Shown one piece after another: positions 12,608 to 62,518 of a DNA stretch of 64,000 nt (the stretch's first letter is position 1; every line of letters begins with the position of its first letter). A program made the translations under genes and the position numbers. This stretch comes from Meghimatium bilineatum (taxonomy: Eukaryota > Mollusca > Gastropoda > Stylommatophora > Philomycidae). Location: NCBI GenBank assembly GCA_034231615.1, contig CM067316.1, positions 27,580,093-27,644,092 of the forward strand. Direction: 5' to 3'. The notes under the pieces were generated by a model that saw nothing but the letters and a program-made list of their open reading frames with translations, did no database searches and was not told where the DNA came from.

Positions 12608-13233
12608 GGTATGAGCGAGAATTTACCACACACACACAACTAATCGATTCTTATAATTAAAAAAAGTTACCCTACAATGTTCATGATTTTTAATAACAAA
12701 ATAGAGTGTTCTATTTACCTAGGTGAATGGGGCTGGACAACCTCTAATTCCCTTCCACTTTATCTACGGGGCTGATCTAATGGTTTTATGCATTTACGAA
12801 TCGTGAAGGTATATTAGGAGCGTTATTCATAAGGACATTGATATAGACATACAATATATATTATATATAAAACAAAACCTATATCTAAATGGAAACAGAA
12901 TGTTGTTTGTACCATTCTGCTCCATTCCAATAAACGGAATGGTGTTTGTAACACGCCATTCCATCACCCCTAAACAAAATGATGTTTGTACCATCCTGTT
13001 CCATCACCCCTAAACAGAATGATGTTTATTACACTCCGCTCCATTTTCTTCCACCGAGATTCTGAAGAAAGAGGCTGGAAGCAATACAATGTGATATCAC
13101 CTGGTGACACCAAATATTGGTGTGACTTAGAGGAATCAGTTTTGAAGTTTTAAATTGCTTGACTGTTTTACAGTGTTGTCACCGTTTAGCGGGGAGATCT
13201 ACAGTATCATTTCACATGATGCGTGTTAATTTA
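12608..13233. other. No gene recognised; short tandem similarity
   Basis: About three loose copies of a 60-bp unit containing AAACAGAATGATGTTTGTACC occur around 12,880-13,045. Nothing else was recognised. Confidence 0.5.
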
Positions 13234-13989
13234 GGCTAGATTATGCTGTCATGCCCTGGGCTAGATTATGCTGTCATGCCCTGGGCTAGATTATGCTGTC
13301 CTGCCCTGGGCTAGATTATGCTGTCCTGCCCTGGGCTAGATTATGCTGTCCTGCCCTGGGCTAGATTATGCTGTCCTGCCCTGGGCTAGATTATGCTGTC
13401 CTGCCCTGGGCTAGATTATGCTGTCCTGCCCTGGGCTAGATTATGCTGTCATGCCCTGGGCTAGATTATGCTGTCACGCCATGGGCTAGATTATGCTGTC
13501 ACGCCCTGTGCTAGATTATGCTGTCATGCCCTGGGCTAGATTATGATGTCATGCCCTGGGCTAGATTATGCTGTCATGCCCTTGGCTAGATTATGCTGTC
13601 ATGCCTAGATTATGCTGTCATGCCTAGATTATGCTGTCATGCCTAGATTATGCTGTCATGCCTAGATTATGCTGTCATGCCATGGGCTAGATTATGCTGT
13701 CATGCCCTGGGCTAGATTATGCTGTCATGTCTAGATTATGCTGTCATGCCTAGACTATGCTGTCATGCCTAGATTATGCTGTCATGCCTAGGTTATGCTG
13801 TCATGCCTAGATTACTCTGTCATGCCTAGATTACTCTGTCATGCCTAGATTACTCTGTCATGCCTAGATTATGCTGTCATGCCTAGATTATGCTGTCATG
13901 CCTAGATTATGCTGTCATGCCTAGATTATGCTGTCATGCCTAGATTATGCTATCATGCCCTGGGCTAGGTTATGTTGTCATGCGTTGGG
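13234..13989. repeat. Minisatellite with 25-bp and 19-bp nested units
   Basis: About 33 units. The first half is built on a 25-bp unit (TTATGCTGTCATGCCCTGGG plus CTAGA). From about 13,590 most units are a 19-bp variant (TTATGCTGTCATGCCTAGA) that lacks six bases of the longer form. Blocks of long and short units alternate near 13,680-13,730. Variants such as GTCCTG are clustered in the early part, suggesting local expansion of sub-blocks. Confidence 0.95.
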
Positions 13990-15285
13990 TTGCATTATTC
14001 ATGTTATCTGCTGTATTTAGTGGAATGCTTCAAAAACATTGTATTTCTTGTGTCCAGCTATGAACTATGTGAGGTTCTTTCGGACTTTGCCTGTTCATTT
14101 ACTTCCACAGTCTAAGAAATATGTTAGGAAATTCTGATATCCTGCGTTCGTTCTTAAACTCCTGCTATTGGCAGGATGTAATCTGAAGAGCGAACCGTGA
14201 AACTTTCGACTTCAGCATAGTTCTCGGATGACTTTCACCTGTAGATGCGGTTGTCAATTCTACCAGTAAACTGCTTAGTCACATCTTACATGTATGGAAG
14301 GTTAGAACGGTGCTAATCTTTGCTCCACGTCCTGCCCCCAACAAGACACGGACTTTACTAAATCAATTTGTCCATTTCATTGTGTCCAATTTTATGACCA
14401 GCTACACACCTAAACGTATCTGACAATAACAATCTTTAGTAGTTAGTGTGACATAGGACAGGTGAGATAACAGCAGATGGTATCGGCTCATTTCGATAAA
14501 CCTGGCTTCTCTCTCACACACACACACGCTAGACGTAGAGTAATATAAATACATGGTAACTTGTAATCCACGGATAAGAGAATAAGAATAACTACATTTT
14601 CCGAGATATTTCTGGATGACATTGACTGTATTGAATTTTGAATCAGCTCTGCGGTGATTAATAAATCAGCTCTGCGGTGATTAATAAATCAGCTCTGCGG
14701 TGATTAATATTTTAACTTTGCACCAACACATCAAGGAGTCGAAATATGAATGACTTCCGGTCAAAAAGGCGTAAAATAACAGCTGTGTATTTTTCTTCTT
14801 ACCGATAAGCCAAGTTTCGGAGAGGAGTTGGGCGCCACCGACTAAAATTATGTCCATAGAAATGCTACACTGGAGTAACGGTACAAATGACAAATGAATC
14901 AGTCGTGAAACGAATTAAACTTTTTTGTTTTCAACACGTAACGAAACACGCCTAACTTTCTACAATTATTTTGCAATGATGAAGGAGAAGAGAATATCCG
15001 GGAATGATAACATTAAGGAACGGTCTATGTGTGATTTGTTTGTATACTTTGAATGGATGAGGATAGTATTTGGAGAGATTTTTGTTTTGTGTTGACGCAT
15101 ACAGAGTGGCACGCCAATACCGTAACGGGTTATGGGTATTATTATTATTCTTATTATTATTATATCAAACTATCTGCACCCAATGACACACATATGTACA
15201 GTGCCATCCAGTTAGATAGTGTTGACTTACAAAATTGAATCGACTAGAACTTCTAACCGCAACCACAATTTTAAACCAGGAATTT
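13990..15285. other. No gene recognised
   Basis: A 23-bp unit (AATCAGCTCTGCGGTGATT plus AATA) is repeated three times at 14,642-14,710. A weak family R-like stretch lies at 14,148-14,290, and a TTA-rich microsatellite at 15,136-15,165. No coding region was seen. Confidence 0.5.
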
Positions 15286-16325: not shown

Positions 16326-16499
16326 ATCACTTGGAAATATTTTCGACTAAAAACCGCTTAAAGATCGGCACAGCCTGAAGAAATGAGTTTCATATCACCT
16401 GGAAAAGTAATAGAAGTAGGTGCTGTGCTTATCACATCAACCTTGATGTGCTATCAAAAAATGTGGGCTCAACACCGTATTCTGCAATCACCTCACCAG

Positions 16500-16805
16500 T
16501 GTATGACAACTGTATTCCACATTCGCTTCGGGGCTAAAAACCATATTCCACATTCATCTCATCGGGGCTAAAATCATATTCCACATTCATCTAATCGGGG
16601 ATAAAACCATATTCGACATTCATCTCATGGGGGCTAAAATCATATTCCACATTCATCTAATCGGGGCTAAAACCATATTCCACATTCATCTCATGGGGGC
16701 TAAAATCATATTCCACATTCATCTAATCGGGGCTAAAACCATATTCCACATTCATCTAATCGGGGCTAAAACCATATTTCATATTCATCTAATCGTGGCT
16801 AAATG
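16500..16805. repeat. 33-bp minisatellite
   Basis: About nine units contain GGGCTAAAACCATATTCCAC and ATTCATCTAATCG. Two variants (AACC and AATC; CTAATCG and CTCATGG) alternate, giving a weak 66-bp higher-order period. Confidence 0.9.
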
Positions 16806-17682
16806 AGACCACTTACTATGTGCTGTCATGTAGATATATCAAACTGTGAACGAGAAGAAGAAAGTGCTCATCAACCATTTACTTTTCTATGAGACACGTT
16901 GACCCATTCACTTAGGATGGGCTGACTAGAAGTCACTGGTAAATATTAACATGACCTTCTCCAATAAATACCTTTCAACAGAATATTAATCAGGACCCAA
17001 TTCGTGAGATTTTTTATTATTGTTTGAATTTCTATTCGTCACCTATTTACATACTTGGAATCGCATGCCAAAAATAGTCAAGGTATCTTGAAGTATATAA
17101 ATAGTCAGCAATCAAAAGCCAAACAATAGTCAAAACGTCACGTATGAGGTTCTAATTAATTATGTTGGAAGGTCTTCTATTTAGTCAGAGGTCACGGTTT
17201 TAAAATGTCCCTTGTTGAACTGAAAATTGAATTTCGAATACCGATATATCCTGAATATATAAGTATTGACTTACAATTGTGCAGAAACTCTAAAATAGCC
17301 AGGTAGACAGACTTATGCAATTGTGGATTGAATCCATAGAGTGCAAAACACATCCCTTTTGTCAGTCATATCCACCAAGACGAAAGAAAATACTGCCTGC
17401 TGAGATATTATTACTTTCGTAACTGAGTGACTTTGTGGATGACTTGATGCGGGTCACACAGTTCATTACGGTTCCTGGTTCTGTGACGTGATAACTGTCA
17501 GGAAAACATCTCAAATAAGCATATACTATAGATAACACATATTTCTCATGTCCTAAATGTCACACGTTATATGGCATATAACATATAGAATTTGTTAATC
17601 AATCACTATTCCGTGACTACAACTGTGCCTGTTAATGGCCTCAAGACGCCGTGTGCGGAGAGTAATAATACCTGAGCGCTTC
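16806..17682. other. No gene recognised
   Basis: Nothing was recognised in this stretch. Confidence 0.4.
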
Positions 17683-25769: not shown

Positions 25770-26220
25770 TTCAACAGTGATGGTTGACCTCTCAAGACAA
25801 ATATCATGATTGAGCTCTCAAGACAAATATCATGATGATTGAGCTCTCTGACACAGAAATATCTTGATGGTTGAGCTCTCTGACAAAGAATTATCGTGAC
25901 GGTTGAGCTCTCTGGCACATAAATATCGTGACAGTTGAGCTATGTGACACATAAATATCGTGACGGTTGAGCTCTGTGACACATAAATATCGTGACGGTT
26001 GAGCTCTGTGACACAGAACTTTCGAGATGGCTGGTCTCTCTGACAGAAATATTGAGATGTTTGTTTTCTCTGGCAAAGAGCTATCGATATGGCTGAGCTT
26101 TCTGACACAGAACTATCGAGATAGGAATGAGTTCTTTGACACAGAATCATCGAGATTGCTTGTTTATCACAAAACTATTGAGATGACTAAGCTATCTATC
26201 ACAGAACTGTCATGATAGAT
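25770..26220. repeat. 32-bp minisatellite
   Basis: About 13 units of GTTGAGCTCTGTGACACATA and AATATCGTGACG. The central units (25,900-26,010) are nearly identical and the flanks are more diverged, a pattern expected of expansion from the middle. The minus-strand open frames are repeat artefacts. Confidence 0.92.
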
Positions 26221-29519: not shown

Positions 29520-31317
29520 TGTAGAGTGCACTTTCTAGATCACAGACTGACTGTGTCAAAATTCAACCTCCACATCAGGCCACAAATATGTCACCTGTGT
29601 ACAGAAACCGATAACAACAAAGAAAAACTAAACATCGACAAATTGAAAAGATCAACAGATACTTTCTTTAATAAACACTATATCAGGTATAAAGATAAAA
29701 ATGGTAAAATAATATTTGATAAAACAGAAGCACTTACAATATGGGAGATTATGTAAAAGAACTGTTTGACGACCAACGGAACAAAAAACCAACAATACAC
29801 AACAATGATGGACCAGCAATACTGTAATCAGAAGTAGAACATACAATAAATTCTATAAACTGTGGAAAGGTTGCAGGCTCGGACAACATAACAGCAGACA
29901 TAATAAAAACTCTAAATGAGTTTGGTGTAGATACTATCACAGAAATTTGTAATGACATATACGAAACAGGCCATATACCTAAAGACCTAACATCATCAAT
30001 ATTCATACCACTACCTAAGAATCCCAGGGTTGTGGACTGTACAGAATATAGAACAATAAGACTAATGAGCTATCTAACTAAAATACTTCTCAAGATAATA
30101 CATGAAAGAATTAAGAACAAGATAGACATGGAGGTCGGTGAAGAACAATTCGGTTTTTAGGAAAAACAAAGGAACCAGAGAAACTATACTGAGTATCCGG
30201 CTAGTGATAGATAAATATATAGAAGTCCAAAAAGTATCTATATTTGCTTCATAGACTACAGCACGGCCTTTGACAAAGTCCAACATGAAAAATTAATCAA
30301 ATGTCTTCACGAAATAGGTATAGATAGAAAAGACATCAGACATATATATATTGGGAACAGACTGCATCAATAAGGTGTGAAAACAGCTACTATCCATACC
30401 TAGAAATAAGAAGAGGGGTAAGACAAGGCACGGATGCATTTTATCACCAAGCCTATTTAATATCTACACAGAGAATATCTTTTAAAATATAGAAGAAATA
30501 CCAGGACTCAAGATAAATGGGAAAATAATAAACAACATTAGATATGCAGATGACACTGTTCTTTTGGCAGACGGTGAACATGAACTACAAAGACTAATAG
30601 ATCAAGTCAATAAATCAAGAAATGAATATTGACTGAATATAAATATCCAAAAAACAAAAACCATGATAATCAGCAGACACAGAAGAACAGGAGGTAAACA
30701 TAAACATACATGGAGAGAAACTACAACAGCTAAAACAGTATCAATATCTTGGACACATAGTCACAAATGATGGCAGATGTGAAACAGAAGTTAAAACAAG
30801 AATAGGAATCGCTAAAAGTACCTTCAATGACATGAGGAAATTATTAATATCTAAACAAATTAAAAACAAGTTAAAAATGAGAATTATAAAATGCTACATC
30901 TATTCCATATTAATGTATGGCTCAGAAACATGGACAGTAAATAAACAATTAGAAAACAAAATTGATGCCTTTGAGATGTGGGTATATAGAAGAATAGGGA
31001 GAACATCATGGAAAGAGAAGAACACAAATAAAGAGATACTAAAAACACTTAATATGAAGAAAGAACTACTAAGAGAAATAATGATCAGGCAAATAAAATA
31101 TTTTGGACACATTAAAAGACCTTATTGAAGACCTTACTTGAGGGTAAAGTCAAAGGGAAGTGAGCAAGAGGTAGGCAGATACAAGTGGGAGAGTAACATC
31201 ACACGATGGACAGGTTACAGTCTAGCAGAGTGCACCACCAAGACAAGAGAGGAGATGGAGATACGTTGCAGCCAAACTTCGTTGCGGAGACGGCACTTAA
31301 TAATGATGATGATGATT
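29520..31317 (+). mobile_element. RTE-like LINE family A, longest copy
   Basis: The plus-strand coding relic runs from the linker (KNGKIIFDKTEALTIWE, about 29,697-29,753) through RT. RT pieces include KVAGSDNITADIIKTL (about 29,868), IPKDLTSSIFIPLPKNP, CFIDYSTAFDKVQHEKLIK (about 30,240-30,300), SLFNIYTENI and RYADDTVLLAD (30,541-30,573). The post-RT domain follows with LMYGSETWTVNKQLENKIDA, and the tail WESNITRWTGYSLAECTTKT. It ends GACGGCACTTAATAATGATG in an (ATG)n tail at 31,300-31,315. The endonuclease domain is absent. Several frameshifts and stops occur, so it is a pseudogene; a 98-residue open stretch remains at 30,832-31,128. Confidence 0.9.
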
Positions 31318-33108: not shown

Positions 33109-33900
33109 TTATACTTCCATCTGTTCCTCCACATTCATGTACATCATCATCATCAAGTGTCGTCTCAAACGAAGGTTGGCTGCAACGTATCTCCAACATC
33201 TCCTGTCACTTGTCTTGGTGGTGCACTCTGCTAGACTGTAACCTGTCCATCGTGTAATGTTACTCTCCCACTTGCATCTCTGCCTACCTCTTGCTCGCTT
33301 CCCTTTGACTTTACCCTCAAGTAAGGTCTTCAATAGGGTGTCATGTCTTTTAATGTGTCCAAAGTATTTTATCTGCCTGATCTTTATTTCTCTTAGTAGT
33401 TCTTTCTTCATATTAAGTGTTTTTAGCACCTCTTTATTTGTTTTCTTCTCTTTCCATGATGTTCTCCCTATTCTTCTATATACCCACATCTCAAAGGCAT
33501 CAATTTTGTTTTCTAATTGTTTATTTAGTGTCCATGTTTCTGAGCCATACATTAATATGGAATAGATGTAGCATTTTATAATTCTCATTTTTAACTTGTT
33601 TGTAATTTGTTTAGATATTAATAATTTCCTCATGTCATTGAAGGTACTTTTAGCCATTCCTATTCTCCTTTTAACTTCTGTTTCACATCTGCCATCATTT
33701 GTGACTATGTGTCCAAGATATTGATACTGTTTTACTTGTAGTTTCTCTCCCTGTATGTTTATGTTTACCTCCTGTTCTTCTGTATTTTTGCTGATTATCA
33801 TGGTTTTTGTTTTTTGAATGTTTATATCCAGTCCATATTCATTACTTGATTTATTGACTTGATCTATTAGTCTTTGTAGTTTCATGTACACGATCTCCAA
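33109..33900 (-). CDS. Open frame in family A LINE: post-RT region, 263 aa
   Basis: The frame has the order NIQKTKTMIISKNTEEQEVN (about residues 27-46), YQYLGHIVTNDGRC, GMAKSTFNDMRKLLIS, CYIYSILMYGSETWTLNK, DAFEMWVYRRIGRTSWKEKK, IRQIKYFGHIKRHD, GRQRCKWESNITRWTGYSLA. These follow the RT palm in RTE-type elements. The reading frame starts and ends in host flanks: the first two or so and last dozen residues lie outside the insert, so neither terminus is authentic. No catalytic YADD remains. It is open but has no expected activity. It serves as the reference for older copies. Confidence 0.85.
   Translation of the reverse strand: MEIVYMKLQRLIDQVNKSSNEYGLDINIQKTKTMIISKNTEEQEVNINIQGEKLQVKQYQYLGHIVTNDGRCETEVKRRIGMAKSTFNDMRKLLISKQITNKLKMRIIKCYIYSILMYGSETWTLNKQLENKIDAFEMWVYRRIGRTSWKEKKTNKEVLKTLNMKKELLREIKIRQIKYFGHIKRHDTLLKTLLEGKVKGKRARGRQRCKWESNITRWTGYSLAECTTKTSDRRCWRYVAANLRLRRHLMMMMYMNVEEQMEV
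33144..33880 (-). mobile_element. RTE-like LINE family A, young 5'-truncated copy
   Basis: Exact 10-bp target duplications TTCATGTACA lie at 33,134-33,143 and 33,881-33,890. The insert begins on its 3' side with (ATC)n and the conserved 3' block. The whole retained coding region is open, which makes it the youngest family A copy here. It contains only the post-RT region (thumb and C-terminus), so it cannot move by itself. Confidence 0.92.
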
Positions 33901-37655: not shown

Positions 37656-37659
37656 TAAG

Positions 37660-37945
37660 TTTTAGTTATAAATGGCGAGCATGATTGAATGTTGTTTATT
37701 TATAAATGACGAGAATGATTGAATGTTGTGTTATTTATAAATGGCGAGCATGATTGAATGTTGTGTTAGTTATAAATGGCGAGCATGATTGAATGTTGTT
37801 TAGTGATAAATGACGAGAATGATTGAATGTTGTGTTAGTGATAAATGACGAGAATGATTGAATGTTGTGTTAGTAAGAAATAGCGAGCATGATTGAATGT
37901 TGTTTAGTGATAAATTATGAGCATGATTGATTGTTGTTTCTTCTA
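37660..37945. repeat. 34-36-bp minisatellite
   Basis: About eight units of ATAAATGGCGAGCATGATTG and AATGTTGT plus a variable TTAGT-type spacer. Unit length varies through the spacer. Confidence 0.9.
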
Positions 37946-38107
37946 TATCTACTAATGTGCGTGTATTCTGCGTGTCTTTCTTCAATTCTGTGAATTCTAA
38001 ACTACAAGAAAAGATTTCATCCGATTTCAAAAGCAATGAACTAGATATGTGAACTGTGCTGAGTTTTTGATAGTCTATTCCCTAAACTACAGACATATTC
38101 TTCTGTA

Positions 38108-39630: not shown

Positions 39631-42600
39631 ATTAGGTTACATCAAATCAATGTCCTTTTGATCACATATTATATGACTACGTGGCCGACCCACAGCTAAA
39701 ACATTGATATTGCACGCATTGAAGAAATATTGCTGCTTGCTCACATTGAAGAAACATTGCATACACTGAAAATATACTGCACACATTTAAGAAATATTGC
39801 TGCACGCATCGAAGAATATTGTCGCAAATACACACCGCCACGCCCCCCCCCCTTTTTTTCTGCCAACACTGGTTTTTCTTCTTCAACAGTGGACCCTAGC
39901 TCTTGTGGATCTCCATCTATGTTACTTTCTCCCCAATCTTCTTCCCTGTACTCTTCTGTAATCTATTTTCTGAGACCTCTTTTAGCAGCCCAGTGTTGTC
40001 TATTTCTTCTAATGGTTTCCATCATCGATGTGTTGTTGCTTTTGATATTCTGCTTCTGCGTCCGTGCTCAAACAATGTGTTAGATTGGGATTAGCCTAGC
40101 TGCGAACATTTAGTTGGTCTGCTCAAACAGTCTATTTAAAGTGACAATAAATATGTAAATAAACGGTGACAATTGAAATAGCAATGAAAATACTACATGC
40201 ACATTCACACTGGAAAGATAACAAATTGGAAGATACATTCAAAACATCACTCTTGAATTTGAAATATTCTACAAAATTACAGGATAGAAATAAAAGAAAT
40301 AAGTAATGGAAAATTTGAGATGTCCAAAGTTTCAGTTTAAAATTGAATGATCAAATACAAGTGTAAAATAGGAACATATATTCAGAACATACTTTTATAA
40401 TGGAAAGATATGTTCGCAATATTTTTCACACTTTCTCTCTGCAGAAAATACCACTTTCAAAATATACGCTGAAAATATCACTTTAAAATATATGCTGAAA
40501 ATATAGCTAAAAATATCACTTAACAAATATCTGCTGAAAATATAACTAAAAAATATCTGCTGACAATATTACTAAAATATATATGCTGAAAGCACACCTT
40601 AAAATTAACACTGATAAGCTCGAATCTATTCGAAATAACAGCGAGATAAATGAACAGAAAAAAAATATAGAAATATTTCCAACTTTCAAGACAAAATGAA
40701 GTCACAAGCAGCTACATAAATAGCGACGCCCTGTCAAAGCCCACTTTACCAGAGAAGATCAGCCGTAAGGGATCATCATAGAGGATTTAGCTGTGTCACG
40801 GCATATACTATACATAAACAGTGAAGATATATCCATAATTAATGTAAACATGTAGATCTTCCACCGCCATAAACATTTTAAAAATGGTTTTGGCGATACT
40901 GTCAAATTCACCATAAACGGCAACGCTCTATCACATGTTATTGTCACAAACGGCTAAGCTCTTGTCACTATGTCATCGTCACAAAAAGCAACGTTCTTTC
41001 ATATTGCATCGTCATAAACGGAATAGCTCTGTCCCGTGCATCCTTCCCCATAAACGGCGAAGATATTTTTAAATATAAAGCTTCGATGAAGTATAATGAA
41101 AATCAGAAGATTCAGCTAATTACAAATCACAAGATTCCAACTAAATACGTCCATTGAGTACTAACAAATCAGAAACGATTGCAACATTAATAAAGATATG
41201 ATTTTAACACCGACAATTGTTCAATCATCAAATAAAGTATAAGAAAACTATCCTGGATTGTTAGTCCTAATTAAACATATGAAATATTAATGACAACACA
41301 AGGAGAGTTATGATCGCATTTTACACACTGCATTACACACTGCACACCGGTTACATTACTGTGTGCTCTATGCTAATACAAACTGAGTGGCAGACCTATA
41401 TGTACACAACAAAGTGTTCTATGACACAGAAACGTGACTGAAAACTGGTTATATTAATACACAATGAGAAATACTCTATAATGATAATACAAACTTAACT
41501 GAAAATTGTTCTATGATTTTTCGACTAATAATTGTTCTAGGCCTATAGCTGACAAACTGATCTAGGAATTGTTCTATAACAATATAAACTAATATGAAAG
41601 TTGTTATATGATAACTTGATAGAGAATTGTATATATAACATATAAATTGTTCTATTAAAACTTAACTGCAAATTGTTCTACGATAACTTGTTTTAGAATT
41701 GTTATATAATACAAACTTGATAACTATGATAACCAACAGCTAAGATATACTCTATCCAAAGTGAGTGTTCCTTGACAAATGTTATGCTTGTTTGTGATAC
41801 TAAACTGATACTATACATTACTGCCGACAACCTCATCTGCTACACTAAAGTTTCAGTCTGTGACTAGCACCGTTCACAAAGGATCACATATTGGGATGAA
41901 ATATGCCAATATATATATATGAGATTAGAGGTGAATATATTTATTGATAGAGATAACTAAAAAAAAAATTGTTTAACTACTCACCTTGAACAGATATTAA
42001 GTCCATAAAGATATCATTTCTGTTCATAAGTCCAAAATTAGTCCCAGGTTACGTTAATCCAATTTACGAAAAATGCTTAATAAGTTCTTCACAGGTAATA
42101 CGGATAGGTCCTTCTAGTTAGATATTTTTTAAACACGAGGATACTGCATGGCTTAATGATACAAACACAAGTTCACACAAACACCACTGACCCACTCTAG
42201 TTCAGATTGTTGTTGACGATGGCTAAGATTTCGAAGTACCGTGGTATCAAAATAGCAATACCATAGAAACCAGTGGAGTCGCTATACACCTGTAAGACAA
42301 ACCTGGTCGGAGATGTGATACCGGTCTAGGTGCTTGCTAACTATTTGGATAACTTGGATAGCGAAAGGGCCGAGCCACATTTCACATTTTATTAAAGGCG
42401 GGAAATGGACTGATGTTGATGGTGGCGAGTATACAACTAGAGGGGTTGAACCACTAGTGCTGACTCAACGTCAGAACAGACATCGCGAACGGTAGCGGAT
42501 ACCGGTAGAACGGTAGCCCAGCTAGTGTGACTGGTCAGACAATCGATGGCAGCGAATTGGCTTCTTGCCTATCAACTACACGAACACGTTGAGGGGCGTG

Positions 42601-52644: not shown

Positions 52645-53070
52645 ATTTCATAGATCACTTCATCTGTCAATCTGCAGTGCGCACGAGTGCGTCGAATTTA
52701 GTTATGGCCATTTTTTGCCGTTGTAAATCCATAACCTTTTATGTCCCTTAATGCTTCTACAAGCCTATAACTGTATCCTGCAAGAGTGCTGACATACAGT
52801 CGTGTTGTGTAGTATTCCCGAACGACATCGGGTTTTTTACCTTTAATTGTTGATTCTTGGTGACTCTTGGAATCTGTGTACAAGCTACTTTTATTCCTGA
52901 CAAATTTCTTTGTTTATATCATCTCTATAGCAAATATGTAGCATCTGTCTATATCATTCATGTTGAAATATCTTAATAATCTCCCTAGATCTGTCATGGG
53001 TTTCCAACTCTCGAATCTACATAGCATGATATATAACGTTACTAATGTGTATAATGTGACATTAATTCCA
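52645..53070. other. No gene recognised
   Basis: The minus frames at 52,698-52,883 and 52,914-53,147 show no motif that can be assigned. Left flank of the LTR element. Confidence 0.4.
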
Positions 53071-53824
53071 GAACCTACGGTCAAAATGTTTAATGGCAAC
53101 AAGCGATACAAAAGACGGTGACATGCAGATTTGTATCTCGCGGTCACCTGAATGTTGACCAGTGAAATAAGGAAACGTTAGAGAACGGCAGATTAGAGAC
53201 TACAGAACCTTTTAACGATACGTATTGAAATAAATAGTTTGTGACTGTGTGATGTTGAATGAACGGACAGATTGAATACAGATAATTATGGGACTCACCT
53301 AAATGTTGAAAGAGTAAGAATTGTGGGAAAATAAGGAGAGGTTTTAGTGGGAAGGAGTTAGTTTGGTTTTGGATGAGTTAGAGCTTGGAATTCGAGCTGG
53401 ACAGACGTGTCCAGGAAAGACAGTTTCGAACCTGTCCAGTGGTTCGGAGTTAGAGCATAGTTTCAGACTTGAGAGTCTGGAAACACTGAGTTGTTTAGGA
53501 GTTGGATTATACTATCGTATACTGGAGTTCAGTTACATACATATAATTGATTGCAGAATATTGGATACTCTATTTATCAAATTGATGTTGTAATTTGATG
53601 TTGTACCTTCTGGACATTTTGAACCAATATAATAAAGTTACCAGATATATGTGAACACGCTGAAGTCGCAGTGAGTTATTCAGCCTTTATGTATAACCTT
53701 GATGTTGTGGAATAGTTACGCTACAATAACGACACGGCCCACATAGTTACCACACATATATACCACGACCATATATGCACCACAGAAGAAGCTCAGCCGT
53801 ATACTGACACTTTATACTGTCATA
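53071..53824 (+). repeat. 5' LTR, 754 bp
   Basis: Begins GAACCTACGGTCAAAATG and ends ATACTGTCATA. It shows the polyadenylation hexamer AATAAA near 53,630 and TATTTA-rich sequence upstream. The repeat may start a few bases earlier (TTCC at 53,066 is shared with the other LTR). The usual TG...CA ends are not plain. Confidence 0.9.
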
Positions 53825-54699
53825 AGTGGTGCATTGACCAGGATCTCGCGGCACATGAAGTACTAACCATTATATTGATCTACGCCAAACCAGAGTCCAG
53901 TACCGGCCGCAGGTAGAAAATTTCAAAGAATTCAGGAAATATTTACCTATCGCGTGTGAAATAAATGTATGTTAAAATATTCATGGATTCGTTATAAATT
54001 CCGACAAGTGCACAAGAAGATATTTGCATTGTGAGTATTAAAATATTGACAATATTACGCTAGCTGCATAGAACAAAGAACAGTTATGTTTAAGAAGGAA
54101 CAAGTTGTTTACAGATAAGTGTGGGAACATTGGATTAGTTATTTGACAATGAACATTTGTGTATAAGATATATCTAGAAGGAACAATTTAGAACCAGAAA
54201 CTTAAGAAGAATAATGATTCAGTTATCTGTAAATATTAATTGTGTGTGATAATAGATACGTTTTTTTATCCATAGGAAAATTAGATTAGGTGATATGATT
54301 AGTTATAACTTCAATTATTACTTGCAAACAGTGTTCAGCTACATATATAATTAAGTCCACAGGGTCACCATGATGTTTATATAAATAAGTAACCGTATTA
54401 TTTTATGACATTGTGGTTGCAGTATTGCAGACGCACTGATTTTTAATTTTATTTTGTTACGATTTAAGGATAAATACAATTTTTGCAGATATGAAGTAAG
54501 AAGTTAAGAGAAATATGGAAGGTAACAGATTCGCATATAGCAGACCAGATGAGAGATGCAGGGCGCAGTGGGCGAAGACAGGAGGAATTGATAAGAGGAA
54601 AGTCTGCAGAAGACAATAGAAGTGGGCGATGTTTCAATTGTGGACAGAACGGGCATCTCGCAAGAGAATGCAGAACGTGGGAAGAATCGAGTCGAGGCT

Positions 54700-54965
54700 G
54701 TGGTGAGAAAAAGAGAAAATGCAGGCGAGTCAAGAAAAGTGTTCATGGCCAGACTAAGAAATAAAAATTCGATCCATGAAGTGAGAAAAATAATTAACAG
54801 ATTCGGACGCCTCGAACATATAGTGATCCCTTGGGACCGAGTAAGAGATCGAAAAAGTACGTTTGCTTTCATCACCTTCTCTAATGACGCAGGAAAGAGG
54901 AGATGTTTGGAGGCAGCTCGCCGTTTGTTCGACACCCATAGAGTGGTGGTGGAAGAGACTAGGCG
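54700..54965 (+). other. RRM-like segment in the LTR element interior
   Basis: Residues read KVFMARL (RNP2-like), a helix EVRKIINRFGRLEHIVIPW, then RKSTFAFITFS (RNP1-like, with aromatics at the expected places), and the second helix GKRRCLEAARRLF. The spacing agrees with a single RNA recognition motif of about 70 residues. RRMs are usual in LINE-1 ORF1p and in host splicing factors, but not in LTR-element Gag proteins. The CCHC knuckle lies just before it. Origin by capture of a host gene is inference. Confidence 0.6.
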
Positions 54966-55083
54966 GGCGACTGAGAAGGTAGACATAAGAAGATAGAAGG
55001 GTAATAGACAGCCGACATAGAGAGACAAGCCCGATACGAGAAAAGAGGGTCATTCGAAAACAGTAAGAATTCAGGCATTTCAG

Positions 55084-55450
55084 TTGGCACGACATCAGGG
55101 AACACGGAGAATGGAAAAGAGATCGGAACAGGCCAACAATGAGGCAGCAGAACCAGAGATAGATAGCAGAAATTGGCAGATAAACGCACTGAGAACCCGC
55201 AAGAAAAATAGAAAGGATGCCCCCGACAGCACAGAAGAATATGCAAGATTGCTAACAGAAGTAGAAGCAAGCCTTCAGGGAAGAATTACGGCAGGCCGTA
55301 AATGAGAGACAGACACCAGAGGAACGAATGAAGGCACTTCATTCAGAATTGAGAGCTCTGTGTGACACAGCGCGCACAACGGAGCAGACCAAAGAGATCC
55401 AGGATCTGCAAGAAAAATTACTGATCGCACGACATGAAACCGGAAACTCG
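55084..55450 (+). other. Charged, coiled-coil-like segment in the LTR element
   Basis: Glu-, Lys- and Arg-rich sequence includes ARLLTEVEASLQGRI at the end of one piece and LHSELRALCDTARTTEQTKE, IQDLQEKLLIARHE in another. The heptad-like spacing of leucines suggests a coiled coil, a plausible multimerisation part of a Gag-like protein. No named family was recognised. Confidence 0.45.
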
Positions 55451-56006
55451 CCCAAGCCCTGTTAGTAGAACACGGAGAAGATATACACGGCGAGATTAGT
55501 GCACGCTAGAGAAGATGCATTGGCACTAGCCTGAAGGGTCGTAGCGAGAGCCGTCATCAACTAATTTCGAAAAGAAGAATAGTATAGAAATCAACATTGG
55601 ATTTTTCTTCATTAAGTATTTACATCATATTGTGTGCATATTCTTGGTTGTAAAAGATGTTTATGATTGTTGTACGAATTTCTTTTATTCAGGACTGTTG
55701 TAAGAAAATGTTATTATTTTCTTCCCTTGTTTCCTACACATGGTAGAAAGTGAAGGGGTCAGGAGTCAGACACGCTAGATGAGGAGTAAGAGTAGTGAAG
55801 ATTTGACGGATAAAAATCTTGAAAAATAGAAGCACAGGAGGGAATGTGGCCGTATACCACCGGCCATACTAGTAATTTAGTTGCATAACCATCTCTAGCT
55901 ATCGTACGGAATACAGGTGTCAGCTATTATACAACGGAGTAGTTTCTTGGCCAGACTAAGATCGTATCAGTCAAAGGAGAGATCTATCAGTTAAAAATGG
56001 GTTCCT

Positions 56007-56760
56007 GAACCTACGGTCAAAATGTTTAATGGCAACAAGCGATACAAAAGACGGTGACATGCAGATTTGTATCTCGCGGTCACCTGAATGTTGACCAGTG
56101 AAATAAGGAAACGGTAGAGATCGGCAGATTAGAGACTACAGACACTTTTAACGATACGTATTGAAATAAATAGTTTGTGACTGTGTGATGTTGAATGAAC
56201 GGATAGATTGAATACAGATAATTATGGGACTCACCTAAATGTTGAAAGAGTAAGAATTGTGGGATATGAATGAGAGGTTTTAGTTGGAAGGAGTTAGTTT
56301 GGTTTTGGATGAGTTAGAGCTTGGAATTCGTGCTGGACAGACGTGTCCAGGAAAGATAATCTCGAACCAGTCCAGTGGTTCGGAGTTAGAGCATAGTTTC
56401 AGACTTGATAGTCTGGAAACACTGAGTTGTTTAAGAGTTGGATTATACTATCGTATACTGGAGTTCAGTTACATACATATAATTGATTGCAGAATATTGG
56501 ATACTCTATTTATCAAATTGATGTTGTAATTTGATGTTGTACCTTCTGGACACTTTGAACCAATATAATAAAGTTACCAGATATATGTGAACACGCTGAA
56601 GTTGCAGTGAGTTATTCAGCCTTTATGTATCACCTTGATGTTGTGGAATAGTTACGCTACAATAACGGCACGGCCCACATAGTTACCACACATATATACC
56701 ACGACCATATATGCACCACATAAGAAGCTCAGCCGTATACTGACACCTTATACTGTCATA
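56007..56760 (+). repeat. 3' LTR, 754 bp
   Basis: The same length as the 5' LTR and about 97% identical by eye count, with differences spread along it apart from one short cluster near 56,265-56,275. It is preceded by a purine-rich AGTTAAAAATGGG at 55,989-56,001 that may be a polypurine tract. Confidence 0.9.
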
Positions 56761-62156: not shown

Positions 62157-62432
62157 GTCATACAAAGTATAGTCATAGTGACCACACAAAGTAGTGACCA
62201 GACAAAGTATAGTCATAGTGACCACACAAAGTATAGTCATAGTGACCACACAAAGTATAGTCATAGTGACCACACAAAGTAGTGACCAGACAAAGTAGTC
62301 ATAGTGACCACACAAAGTATAGTCATAGTAACCACACAAAGTATAGTCATAGTGACCACACAAAGTATAGTCATAGTGACCACACAAAGTATAGTCATAG
62401 CGACCACACAAAGGATAGTTATAGTGACCACG
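62157..62432. repeat. 24-bp minisatellite
   Basis: About eleven units of AGTATAGTCATAGTGACCAC plus ACAA, with two partial units reading GTAGTGACCAGACAA. The minus-strand frame (repeating YDYTLCGH) is a repeat artefact. Confidence 0.93.
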
Positions 62433-62518
62433 GAGAATTACGGAAATAGTCAAATTAGTCGTTTAGAATGAATGATTTATCTAGTAGATATTATATTGTC
62501 CACGGTCATGTTATTATA

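What the first reader, a model, noticed from the sequence alone, without database searches (positions are those of the whole stretch)
54490..55460. LTR element interior encodes a zinc knuckle, an RRM-like domain and a coiled coil but no pol
The sequence shows 754-bp LTRs and a CCHC box (CFNCGQNGHLAREC). It also shows an RNP2/RNP1-like pair (KVFMARL ... KSTFAFITF) and a charged helical segment, with no RT or integrase. RRMs are established for LINE-1 ORF1p and splicing factors but are not a standard part of LTR-element Gag. This may be a non-autonomous family that took up an RNA-binding host domain, or a Gag lineage with an unrecognised RRM. Age from LTR divergence is a few million years by inference.
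Basis: partly seen in the sequence, partly recalled or inferred. Interest (0 to 1): 0.7.

Follow-up and report, generated by a model that had tools for sequence, protein, structure and literature searches.

The report
Multi-part LTR retrotransposon carrying RRM domains
The window holds a worn-out piece of a jumping-gene family whose coat, copying enzyme and inserting enzyme appear to be spread over separate elements that share the same ends, like a virus with a segmented genome, and several of these pieces carry a real RNA-binding (RRM) domain.

Summary
The window has an LTR element with a zinc knuckle (Pfam E 2.5e-7) and a genuine RRM (above Pfam's cut-off, PDB-sequence hits to hnRNPs near 1e-8, RRM fold in a model); no pol domain was found. 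The copy is broken by a frame change and a stop.

Its relatives in the same 1.6-Gb genome are more surprising. A young subfamily consists of four kinds of element with related LTRs, 3' tail and polypurine tract: (A) Gag-RRM-PR-RT-RNaseH, no integrase; (B) Gag-RRM-integrase, no PR/RT; (G) Gag with zinc knuckle only; (C) knuckle-RRM-coiled coil. The copy of each that was examined has LTRs 99.65-100% identical; those of A, B and G have perfect 4-bp target duplications. Of 28 RT places (>=70% identity) none has integrase within 10 kb on its strand; of 68 integrase places (>=64%) none has RT; 6 of 20 more distant RT places do. RT/RNaseH show purifying selection (dN/dS 0.03-0.05, dS near saturation).

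Best reading: a Ty3/gypsy lineage whose pol is split over separate, mutually dependent elements, i.e. a multipartite LTR retrotransposon. The window element is a decayed pol-less member of an older subfamily with the same split. Mutual dependence is inferred, not shown.

The parts
53070..53824 (+). 5' LTR, about 755 bp
   Evidence: 96.8% identical to the 3' LTR over 759 ungapped nt that include 4 nt of probable flank
53825..53848 (+). primer-binding site position; a decayed match to the tRNA-His 3' end
   Evidence: only the first 6 nt match the complement of this genome's tRNA-His exactly, against 35 in L019; tRNA-His called by ARAGORN
53825..54494 (+). leader shared with RT-type, integrase-type and pol-less relatives of the subfamily
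   Evidence: 75-92% in pieces to relatives of the same subfamily, 70-94% in pieces to A, B and C of the young subfamily
54495..54764 (+). open piece with the CCHC zinc knuckle (motif about 54630-54671)
   Evidence: Pfam zf-CCHC E 2.5e-7
54730..54996 (+). RRM domain (Pfam span about 54742-54921), in another frame than the knuckle, ended by a stop
   Evidence: Pfam RRM_1 above cut-off; PDB phmmer 1e-8; model and fold search; dN/dS 0.28 and 0.34 in the two pairs computed with this copy
55017..55141 (+). spacer similar to that of integrase-type elements
   Evidence: matches 7 of 7 loci that labels integrase-type (one of them, L026, shows no integrase), the short L014, and L027 of the 9 labelled RT-type
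55141..55485 (+). charged helical / coiled-coil segment, like that after RNaseH in RT-type elements
   Evidence: 78-88% to 7 of 9 loci labelled RT-type, L027 in part only, L019 none; weak piece in integrase-type L021; weaker match to Gag-only elements
55503..55790 (+). 3' tail, closest to integrase-type L018 and L017
55990..56005 (+). position of the polypurine tract before the 3' LTR, not clearly preserved
   Evidence: by comparison with AAGGGGGCGAG|TGTGATAG in A, B, C and G
56006..56760 (+). 3' LTR

Best explanation
The window element is a decayed, pol-less member of a Ty3/gypsy lineage that has divided its genome over several separately integrated elements with related ends. In the youngest subfamily one element (A) encodes a Gag-RRM-protease-RT-RNaseH fusion, a second (B) a Gag-RRM-integrase fusion, a third (G) Gag alone with the zinc knuckle, and a fourth (C) a knuckle-RRM-coiled-coil protein. 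Shown: the anatomy; RT and integrase never on one element among the close matches scored; related LTRs, 3' tail and polypurine tract in all four, and a shared leader in A, B and C; near-identical LTR pairs; 4-bp target duplications in A, B and G; purifying selection on RT and RNaseH. Inferred: the RNAs are co-packaged in particles built mainly from G's Gag; A and B proteins enter through their Gag parts and supply copying, processing and insertion in trans; the RRM helps to recognise element RNA; separate elements, rather than frameshifting, set the ratio of Gag to Gag-enzyme.
For: No co-occurrence: 0 of 28 RT places at >=70% identity have integrase within 10 kb on their strand; 0 of 68 integrase places at >=64% have RT; 0 of the 8 RT places at 60-69% but 6 of 20 at <60% do (places from 96 and 130 rows, further pieces of the same place left out). 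Of loci L009-L028, 8 hold RT, 6 integrase, 0 both, 6 neither. No room for the other half: RRM to integrase 508-755 bp in the 30 of 42 integrase places listed that could be paired with an RRM match; RRM to RT 1059-1133 bp in 11 of 11; LTR probe 226-227 bp after the RT-type query end in the 3 A elements paired. A and B share 1410 nt of Gag+RRM at 97.1% DNA identity. Leader shared by A, B, C; tail and LTR by all four. LTR pairs, one copy each: A 99.7%, C 99.65%, B 100% over 1625 nt seen, G 99.75%. TSDs ACTC (A), CTAC (B), TCTC (G). Open frames: A 1291, B 1062 seen of 1115, C 690, G 601-611 in 5 of 6 sampled. dN/dS RT 0.04, RNaseH 0.03 and 0.05. RRM type follows subfamily, not enzyme: young A versus B 92-94% aa, young versus window subfamily 24-28%, while RT of L009-L012 is 72-89%. 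RT nearest to Ty3's, 8.6e-76.
Against: No expression, particle or mobilisation data. An unrelated autonomous family could supply either enzyme. Only the best candidates were scored (120 of 228 for integrase; 87 of 203 for RT; 40 of 929 for the LTR probe), so a rare complete element could be missed. G's leader is not the one of A, B and C: only 36 nt match, to B. G's Gag is 50% identical to A's over 212 aa and its capsid stays below Pfam's cut-offs, so co-assembly is uncertain. In L030 the Gag part is out of frame with RRM-integrase; other copies with 856-aa frames may be alike. C's target flanks differ at one of four bases (ACAT/ATAT). Primer-binding sites differ among A/C, B and G; only B's L030 and L019 fit tRNA-His well. 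dS is near saturation for RT (2.2) and could not be computed for integrase; A versus B RRM has dN/dS 0.69 over few changes. One RT and one integrase piece lie about 9 kb apart on opposite strands of C25.
Confidence: 0.7

Rival explanations
1. A, B, C and G are ordinary non-autonomous derivatives of one complete Ty3/gypsy master element with the same LTRs, which is rare, recently lost, or missing from the assembly.
For: LTR elements mobilised in trans are known: Tos17 lacks gag, and BARE-2 is cited as using another element's Gag (PMC3977881, passages). More distant relatives with RT next to integrase exist in this genome, and L040 shows the order RT-RNaseH-linker-integrase.
Against: No complete copy among 28 RT and 68 integrase places of the clade. 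The split is also seen in the older window subfamily, so a master would have stayed unseen through at least two subfamilies. RT shows purifying selection although its element has no integrase. C has its own 503-aa unit that a deletion does not explain.
Confidence: 0.19
2. A and B are each mobilised by unrelated autonomous elements, so the complementarity is accidental.
For: Other Ty3/gypsy elements are present.
Against: 97.1% identical Gag+RRM DNA between A and B and an RRM type shared within a subfamily point to exchange between the two. The six nearest conventional relatives lie in short or broken frames.
Confidence: 0.07
3. The window copy itself is a chance internal deletion or recombination product, not a coding type of its own (compatible with the best explanation).
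For: It lacks the capsid region and pol; it joins a spacer typical of integrase-type loci to a helical segment typical of RT-type loci and a tail closest to integrase-type loci.
Against: L014 shares the spacer to coiled-coil join (83% aa over 83 residues); L013 aligns across the place of the missing capsid region. So parts of this layout propagated.
Confidence: 0.4

Closest known systems
Ty3/gypsy LTR retrotransposons (Metaviridae)
   Same: Gag capsid, zinc knuckle, aspartic protease, RT-RNaseH nearest to Ty3, integrase with zinc-binding and core domains, LTRs, short target duplication.
   Different: Integrase is on another element than RT; an RRM follows the capsid region; no CCHC motif was found before the RRM in A or B (scans).
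Trans-mobilised LTR elements such as BARE-2, Tos17, TR-GAG
   Same: Elements missing essential genes that transpose with help (Tos17 and BARE-2: passages of PMC3977881; TR-GAG: recalled and seen in a search listing only).
   Different: There an autonomous helper is thought to supply what is missing; here no complete helper was found and two enzyme-bearing elements lack complementary halves.
LINE ORF1 proteins (Jockey-type with RRM and CCHC; L1 with coiled coil and RRM)
   Same: RRM, CCHC and coiled coil in a retroelement RNA-binding protein (passages of PMC4120745).
   Different: In type I LINE ORF1 the RRM is upstream of the knuckle; here it is downstream, in LTR elements. L1 ORF1p is not among the 60 PDB hits shown for either RRM.
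Multipartite and segmented RNA viruses
   Same: Separate segments with common ends and different coding cores, none complete.
   Different: These are integrated LTR elements; how, and whether, they are packaged is unknown.

Membership tests
RRM (PF00076) | profile match above the curated cut-off (20.7 bits) | tested here: met
   window 22.6; L016 32.1, L015 25.2; L026 26.1; A 44.9, B 41.0, C 45.6. Not met by three decayed or partial pieces: L024 13.6, none for L018 and L019
RRM (PF00076) | RRM fold | tested here: met
   model pLDDT 83.6, Foldseek to RRM structures
RRM (PF00076) | RNA binding | not testable with these tools
   no assay
Ty3/gypsy | RT/RNaseH closest to Ty3 | tested here: met
   4ol8 8.6e-76, first of 17 PDB sequences at E<=1e-10
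Ty3/gypsy | PR-RT-RNaseH-integrase on one element | tested here: not met
   0 of 28 and 0 of 68; RT and integrase adjacent only in 6 distant relatives such as L040
Ty3/gypsy | LTRs with TG...CA ends and short target duplication | tested here: met
   A, B, G with 4-bp TSD, one copy each; C imperfect; window copy none
Ty3/gypsy | tRNA primer-binding site | tested here: inconclusive
   tRNA-His, 18 nt in B L030 and 35 nt in L019; A, C, G and B L041 depart from it
Trans-mobilised non-autonomous LTR element | a complete autonomous partner of the same family | tested here: not met
   none among the places scored; search not exhaustive
Multipartite genome | shared termini, different essential genes per segment | tested here: met
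   LTR, tail and polypurine tract in all four; leader in A, B, C only; genes
Multipartite genome | segments need each other to replicate | not testable with these tools
   inferred only
LINE | LINE-type RT, no LTR | tested here: not met
   LTRs present, Ty3-type RT in A

The most novel reading that the evidence does not exclude
An LTR retrotransposon with a truly multipartite genome: four kinds of separately integrated segment (Gag; Gag-RRM-PR-RT-RNaseH; Gag-RRM-integrase; knuckle-RRM-coiled coil) share LTRs and 3' tail, none can replicate alone, and they are co-packaged, with RRM domains as part of the RNA-sorting device. The arrangement has persisted through at least two subfamilies.
Probability: 0.6. 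Interest if true: 0.95.

Novelty: new variant of a known kind. Interest (0 to 1): 0.85.

Why it matters
LTR retroelements and retroviruses are thought of as having one genomic RNA that carries gag and pol. A lineage that keeps RT and integrase on different elements, both with intact frames and both recently inserted, would be a natural case of how a single genome divides into dependent segments. It would also show a way of setting the ratio of shell to enzyme without frameshifting, and a new place for the RRM, in Gag. It makes the question of how multipartite genomes arise testable on integrated copies that can be dated and counted.

Tried and rejected
Rejected: the RRM as a low-complexity basic stretch. 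Rejected: the element as a LINE. Rejected as the sole account: 'lost its pol by deletion', since close relatives have either RT or integrase, not both, among those scored. Corrected on checking: I had taken the leader to be common to all four types; a direct comparison shows G shares only 36 nt of it, with B. For that I lowered the best explanation from 0.72 to 0.70 and the novel case from 0.62 to 0.60, and raised the master-element rival from 0.17 to 0.19.

Led nowhere: megablast against phage records; viral contigs with the integrase, 5 pattern matches, no relative; the stretches upstream of RT in two conventional relatives, L046 and L047, showed no readable Gag, so whether those had an RRM is open; TTAGG repeats as a hint to the host group (hits listed lie inside contigs, and the reversed control is also high). 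One dN/dS row (B L041 versus L030 integrase) was read in a wrong frame and is not used. Not done: a tree of the RRM with host splicing factors, since about 80 residues at 25-40% identity would hardly resolve.

Literature: ten searches of the open-access library (two of them held no paper) listed nothing, by title and start of abstract, on an RRM in Ty3/gypsy Gag or on a bipartite or multipartite LTR retrotransposon. In some searches only 12 of 14 and 15 of 140 papers were listed. Subscription papers and preprints are not covered. Two papers were seen as passages only, the others as listings.

Full report
1. Observation. The two LTRs at 53066-53824 and 56002-56760 align without gaps at 96.8%. 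Between them lie a CCHC zinc knuckle and an RRM, both above Pfam's cut-offs, in different frames, the RRM frame ended by a stop. The RRM matches hnRNP RRMs in the PDB by sequence, folds as an RRM in an AlphaFold2 model made from an alignment of 12 sequences, and finds RRM structures by Foldseek. The four interior ORF pieces searched show no pol domain.

2. Relatives. A DNA search of the whole genome gave 46 matches. Relatives carry extra sequence where the window has none: about 640-670 bp of Gag (L017, L019, L020), about 140 bp between knuckle and RRM, and about 2.3 kb between window positions 55017 and 55141 in the four RT-type loci L009-L012. Pfam finds capsid, knuckle, RRM, protease, RT and RNaseH in some relatives and integrase in others. 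Of the 20 loci L009-L028, 8 hold RT, 6 hold integrase, none holds both, and 6 hold neither.

3. A young subfamily. A protein search with the window RRM led to long open frames. Type A (L029) is one 1291-codon frame, Gag-RRM-protease-RT-RNaseH-coiled coil. Type B (L041, L030) is Gag-RRM-integrase; L041 has it in one frame, L030 in several. Type C (L031) is a 690-codon frame with knuckle, RRM and coiled coil; its RRM scores 45.6 bits, its knuckle 19.9 against a cut-off of 20.8. Type G was found by asking what lies before the shared 3' tail and LTR start: of 40 scored places out of 929 candidates, 3 were A, 2 B, 12 C and 23 none of these. Of the 23, 21 are Gag-only elements by coordinates, 6 of which were fetched (5 with a 601-611-codon frame, one broken); one (L043) is a deletion derivative with a 100-codon Gag stub; one was not resolved. 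G has 50% identity to A's capsid region over 212 aa though its own capsid scores stay below Pfam's cut-offs, a knuckle above cut-off, and no RRM or pol hit in the pieces searched.

4. Copy counts (lower bounds, best candidates only). RT-type: 11 places cover the full 492-aa query at 92-100% identity, 7 of 11 without a stop. Integrase-type: the first 29 rows cover at least 324 of 334 aa, 24 of 29 without a stop. C: the first 25 rows cover the full 503 aa at 96-100%, 23 of 25 without a stop. G: 36 places cover the full 267 aa, 33 of 36 without a stop, 30 of them in frames of at least 584 codons (which took the first 35). Of 47 G places taken from the 122 rows none has an RT place of the clade within 6 kb; of 35 none has one of 42 integrase places within 6 kb.

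5. Shared ends. A and B share 1410 nt of Gag and RRM at 97.1%, the leader at 87-96% in pieces and the tail at 98%; C shares the leader (95% in part), tail (88-94%) and LTR (80%). G shares the LTR (79-88% to A and C, 80-93% in pieces to B) and the tail (85-86%), but of the leader only 36 nt, with B. All four have the same GACAAGGGGGCGAG|TGTGATAG junction at the 3' LTR. In the one copy of each type examined the LTR pair is 99.7% (A), 99.65% (C), 100% over 1625 nt seen (B) and 99.75% (G) identical. Four-base target duplications are perfect in A, B and G and imperfect in C. So an element without integrase and an element without RT have both been inserted recently, as judged from LTR identity.

6. 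RT and integrase do not meet. From the tables I took 93 integrase places (of 130 rows) and 56 RT places (of 96 rows), leaving out further pieces of the same place. None of 28 RT places at 70% identity or more has an integrase place within 10 kb on its strand; none of 8 at 60-69%; 6 of 20 under 60% do. None of 68 integrase places at 64% or more has RT. One pair lies about 9 kb apart on opposite strands. The distance from RRM to integrase is 508-755 bp in the 30 of 42 integrase places that could be paired with an RRM match; from RRM to RT it is 1059-1133 bp in 11 of 11. The conventional relative L040 has RT-RNaseH, a linker and integrase in the usual order. Reading its linker against A and B, the split lies in that linker (my reading, not a scored test).

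7. Selection and exchange. RT has dN/dS 0.04 and RNaseH 0.03 and 0.05 between subfamilies, with dS near saturation. Integrase is 79% identical over 318 codons between subfamilies; its dS could not be computed. Among window-subfamily RRMs dN/dS is 0.23-0.36 in four pairs and 0.97 in one close pair; A versus B RRM is 0.69 over few changes, A versus B Gag before the RRM 0.38. Between subfamilies the RRM is only 24-28% identical while the RT of L009-L012 is 72-89%; within a subfamily RT-type and integrase-type share the same RRM. This fits exchange of the Gag-RRM part between partners.

8. The window copy. Its spacer at 55017-55141 matches the 7 loci that labels integrase-type (L026 among them shows no integrase), L014 and L027, not the other loci labelled RT-type; its helical segment at 55141-55485 matches RT-type loci; its tail is closest to L018 and L017. 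L014 shares the spacer-helix join and L013 aligns across the missing capsid region. I read it as a decayed pol-less member of the older subfamily, partly mosaic. A deletion from an L027-like RT element is not excluded for the join at 55141.

9. How it would work (inference). G makes most of the shell; A and B bring RT/protease and integrase in as Gag fusions; protease from A would process B; the RNAs would be recognised through shared LTR or tail sequence, and in A, B and C also the leader, by RRM and knuckle proteins. Primer-binding sites vary: B (L030) fits tRNA-His over 18 nt and L019 over 35 nt, while A, C, G and L041 depart from it. This is unexplained.

10. Status. Membership of the Ty3/gypsy group is clear for RT and fits for integrase, whose best PDB hit is the foamy virus enzyme with Ty3 behind it; the usual single complete pol is not met here. 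The literature searches listed nothing like it; subscription papers were not searchable. I keep the label 'new variant of a known kind', because mutual dependence is not shown, and give the multipartite reading as the novel case.

Noticed in passing
G000 C23:72501846-72517967, C22:40143328-40152172, C16:48123082-48135084, C2:47222607-47230901, C10:321773-330731: Elements of types C, G and B occur as head-to-tail arrays with constant spacing (4871, 4010, about 5558, 3735 and 3935 bp), suggesting units that share LTRs.
   Followed up: no
G000 C1:94006343-94090856: Five integrase-type copies at 20.7-21.1 kb spacing, probably a segmental array.
   Followed up: no
L021:642-1837 (-): A second element at this locus pairs young-type capsid and RRM (93% and 92%) with a stretch like G's coiled coil (89% over 76 aa): perhaps a further pol-less kind.
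   Followed up: no
L019, primer-binding site after the 5' LTR: The primer-binding site matches tRNA-His over 35 nt, far beyond the usual 18 (18 is recalled).
   Followed up: partly
L029:557-610, L034, L036, L041, L054: Primer-binding sites differ between segment types of the same young subfamily, and between two B copies.
   Followed up: partly
L034 1-1600: Tandem arrays in leader (83-bp unit, 6.5 copies) and LTR (128-bp unit, 4.5 copies) of type B; A and C have fewer units by self-comparison, none reported by TRF for A.
   Followed up: partly
window 42491-42578 (-): tRNA-Gly (gcc) predicted by ARAGORN.
   Followed up: no
window 30723-31120 and 33345-33742: Inverted repeat, 398-nt arms, 96% complementary; related repeats elsewhere in the window.
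   Followed up: no
window 13159-14017, 16471-16833, 25793-26142, 37659-37970, 62168-62463: Minisatellite arrays with units of 19-35 bp.
   Followed up: no
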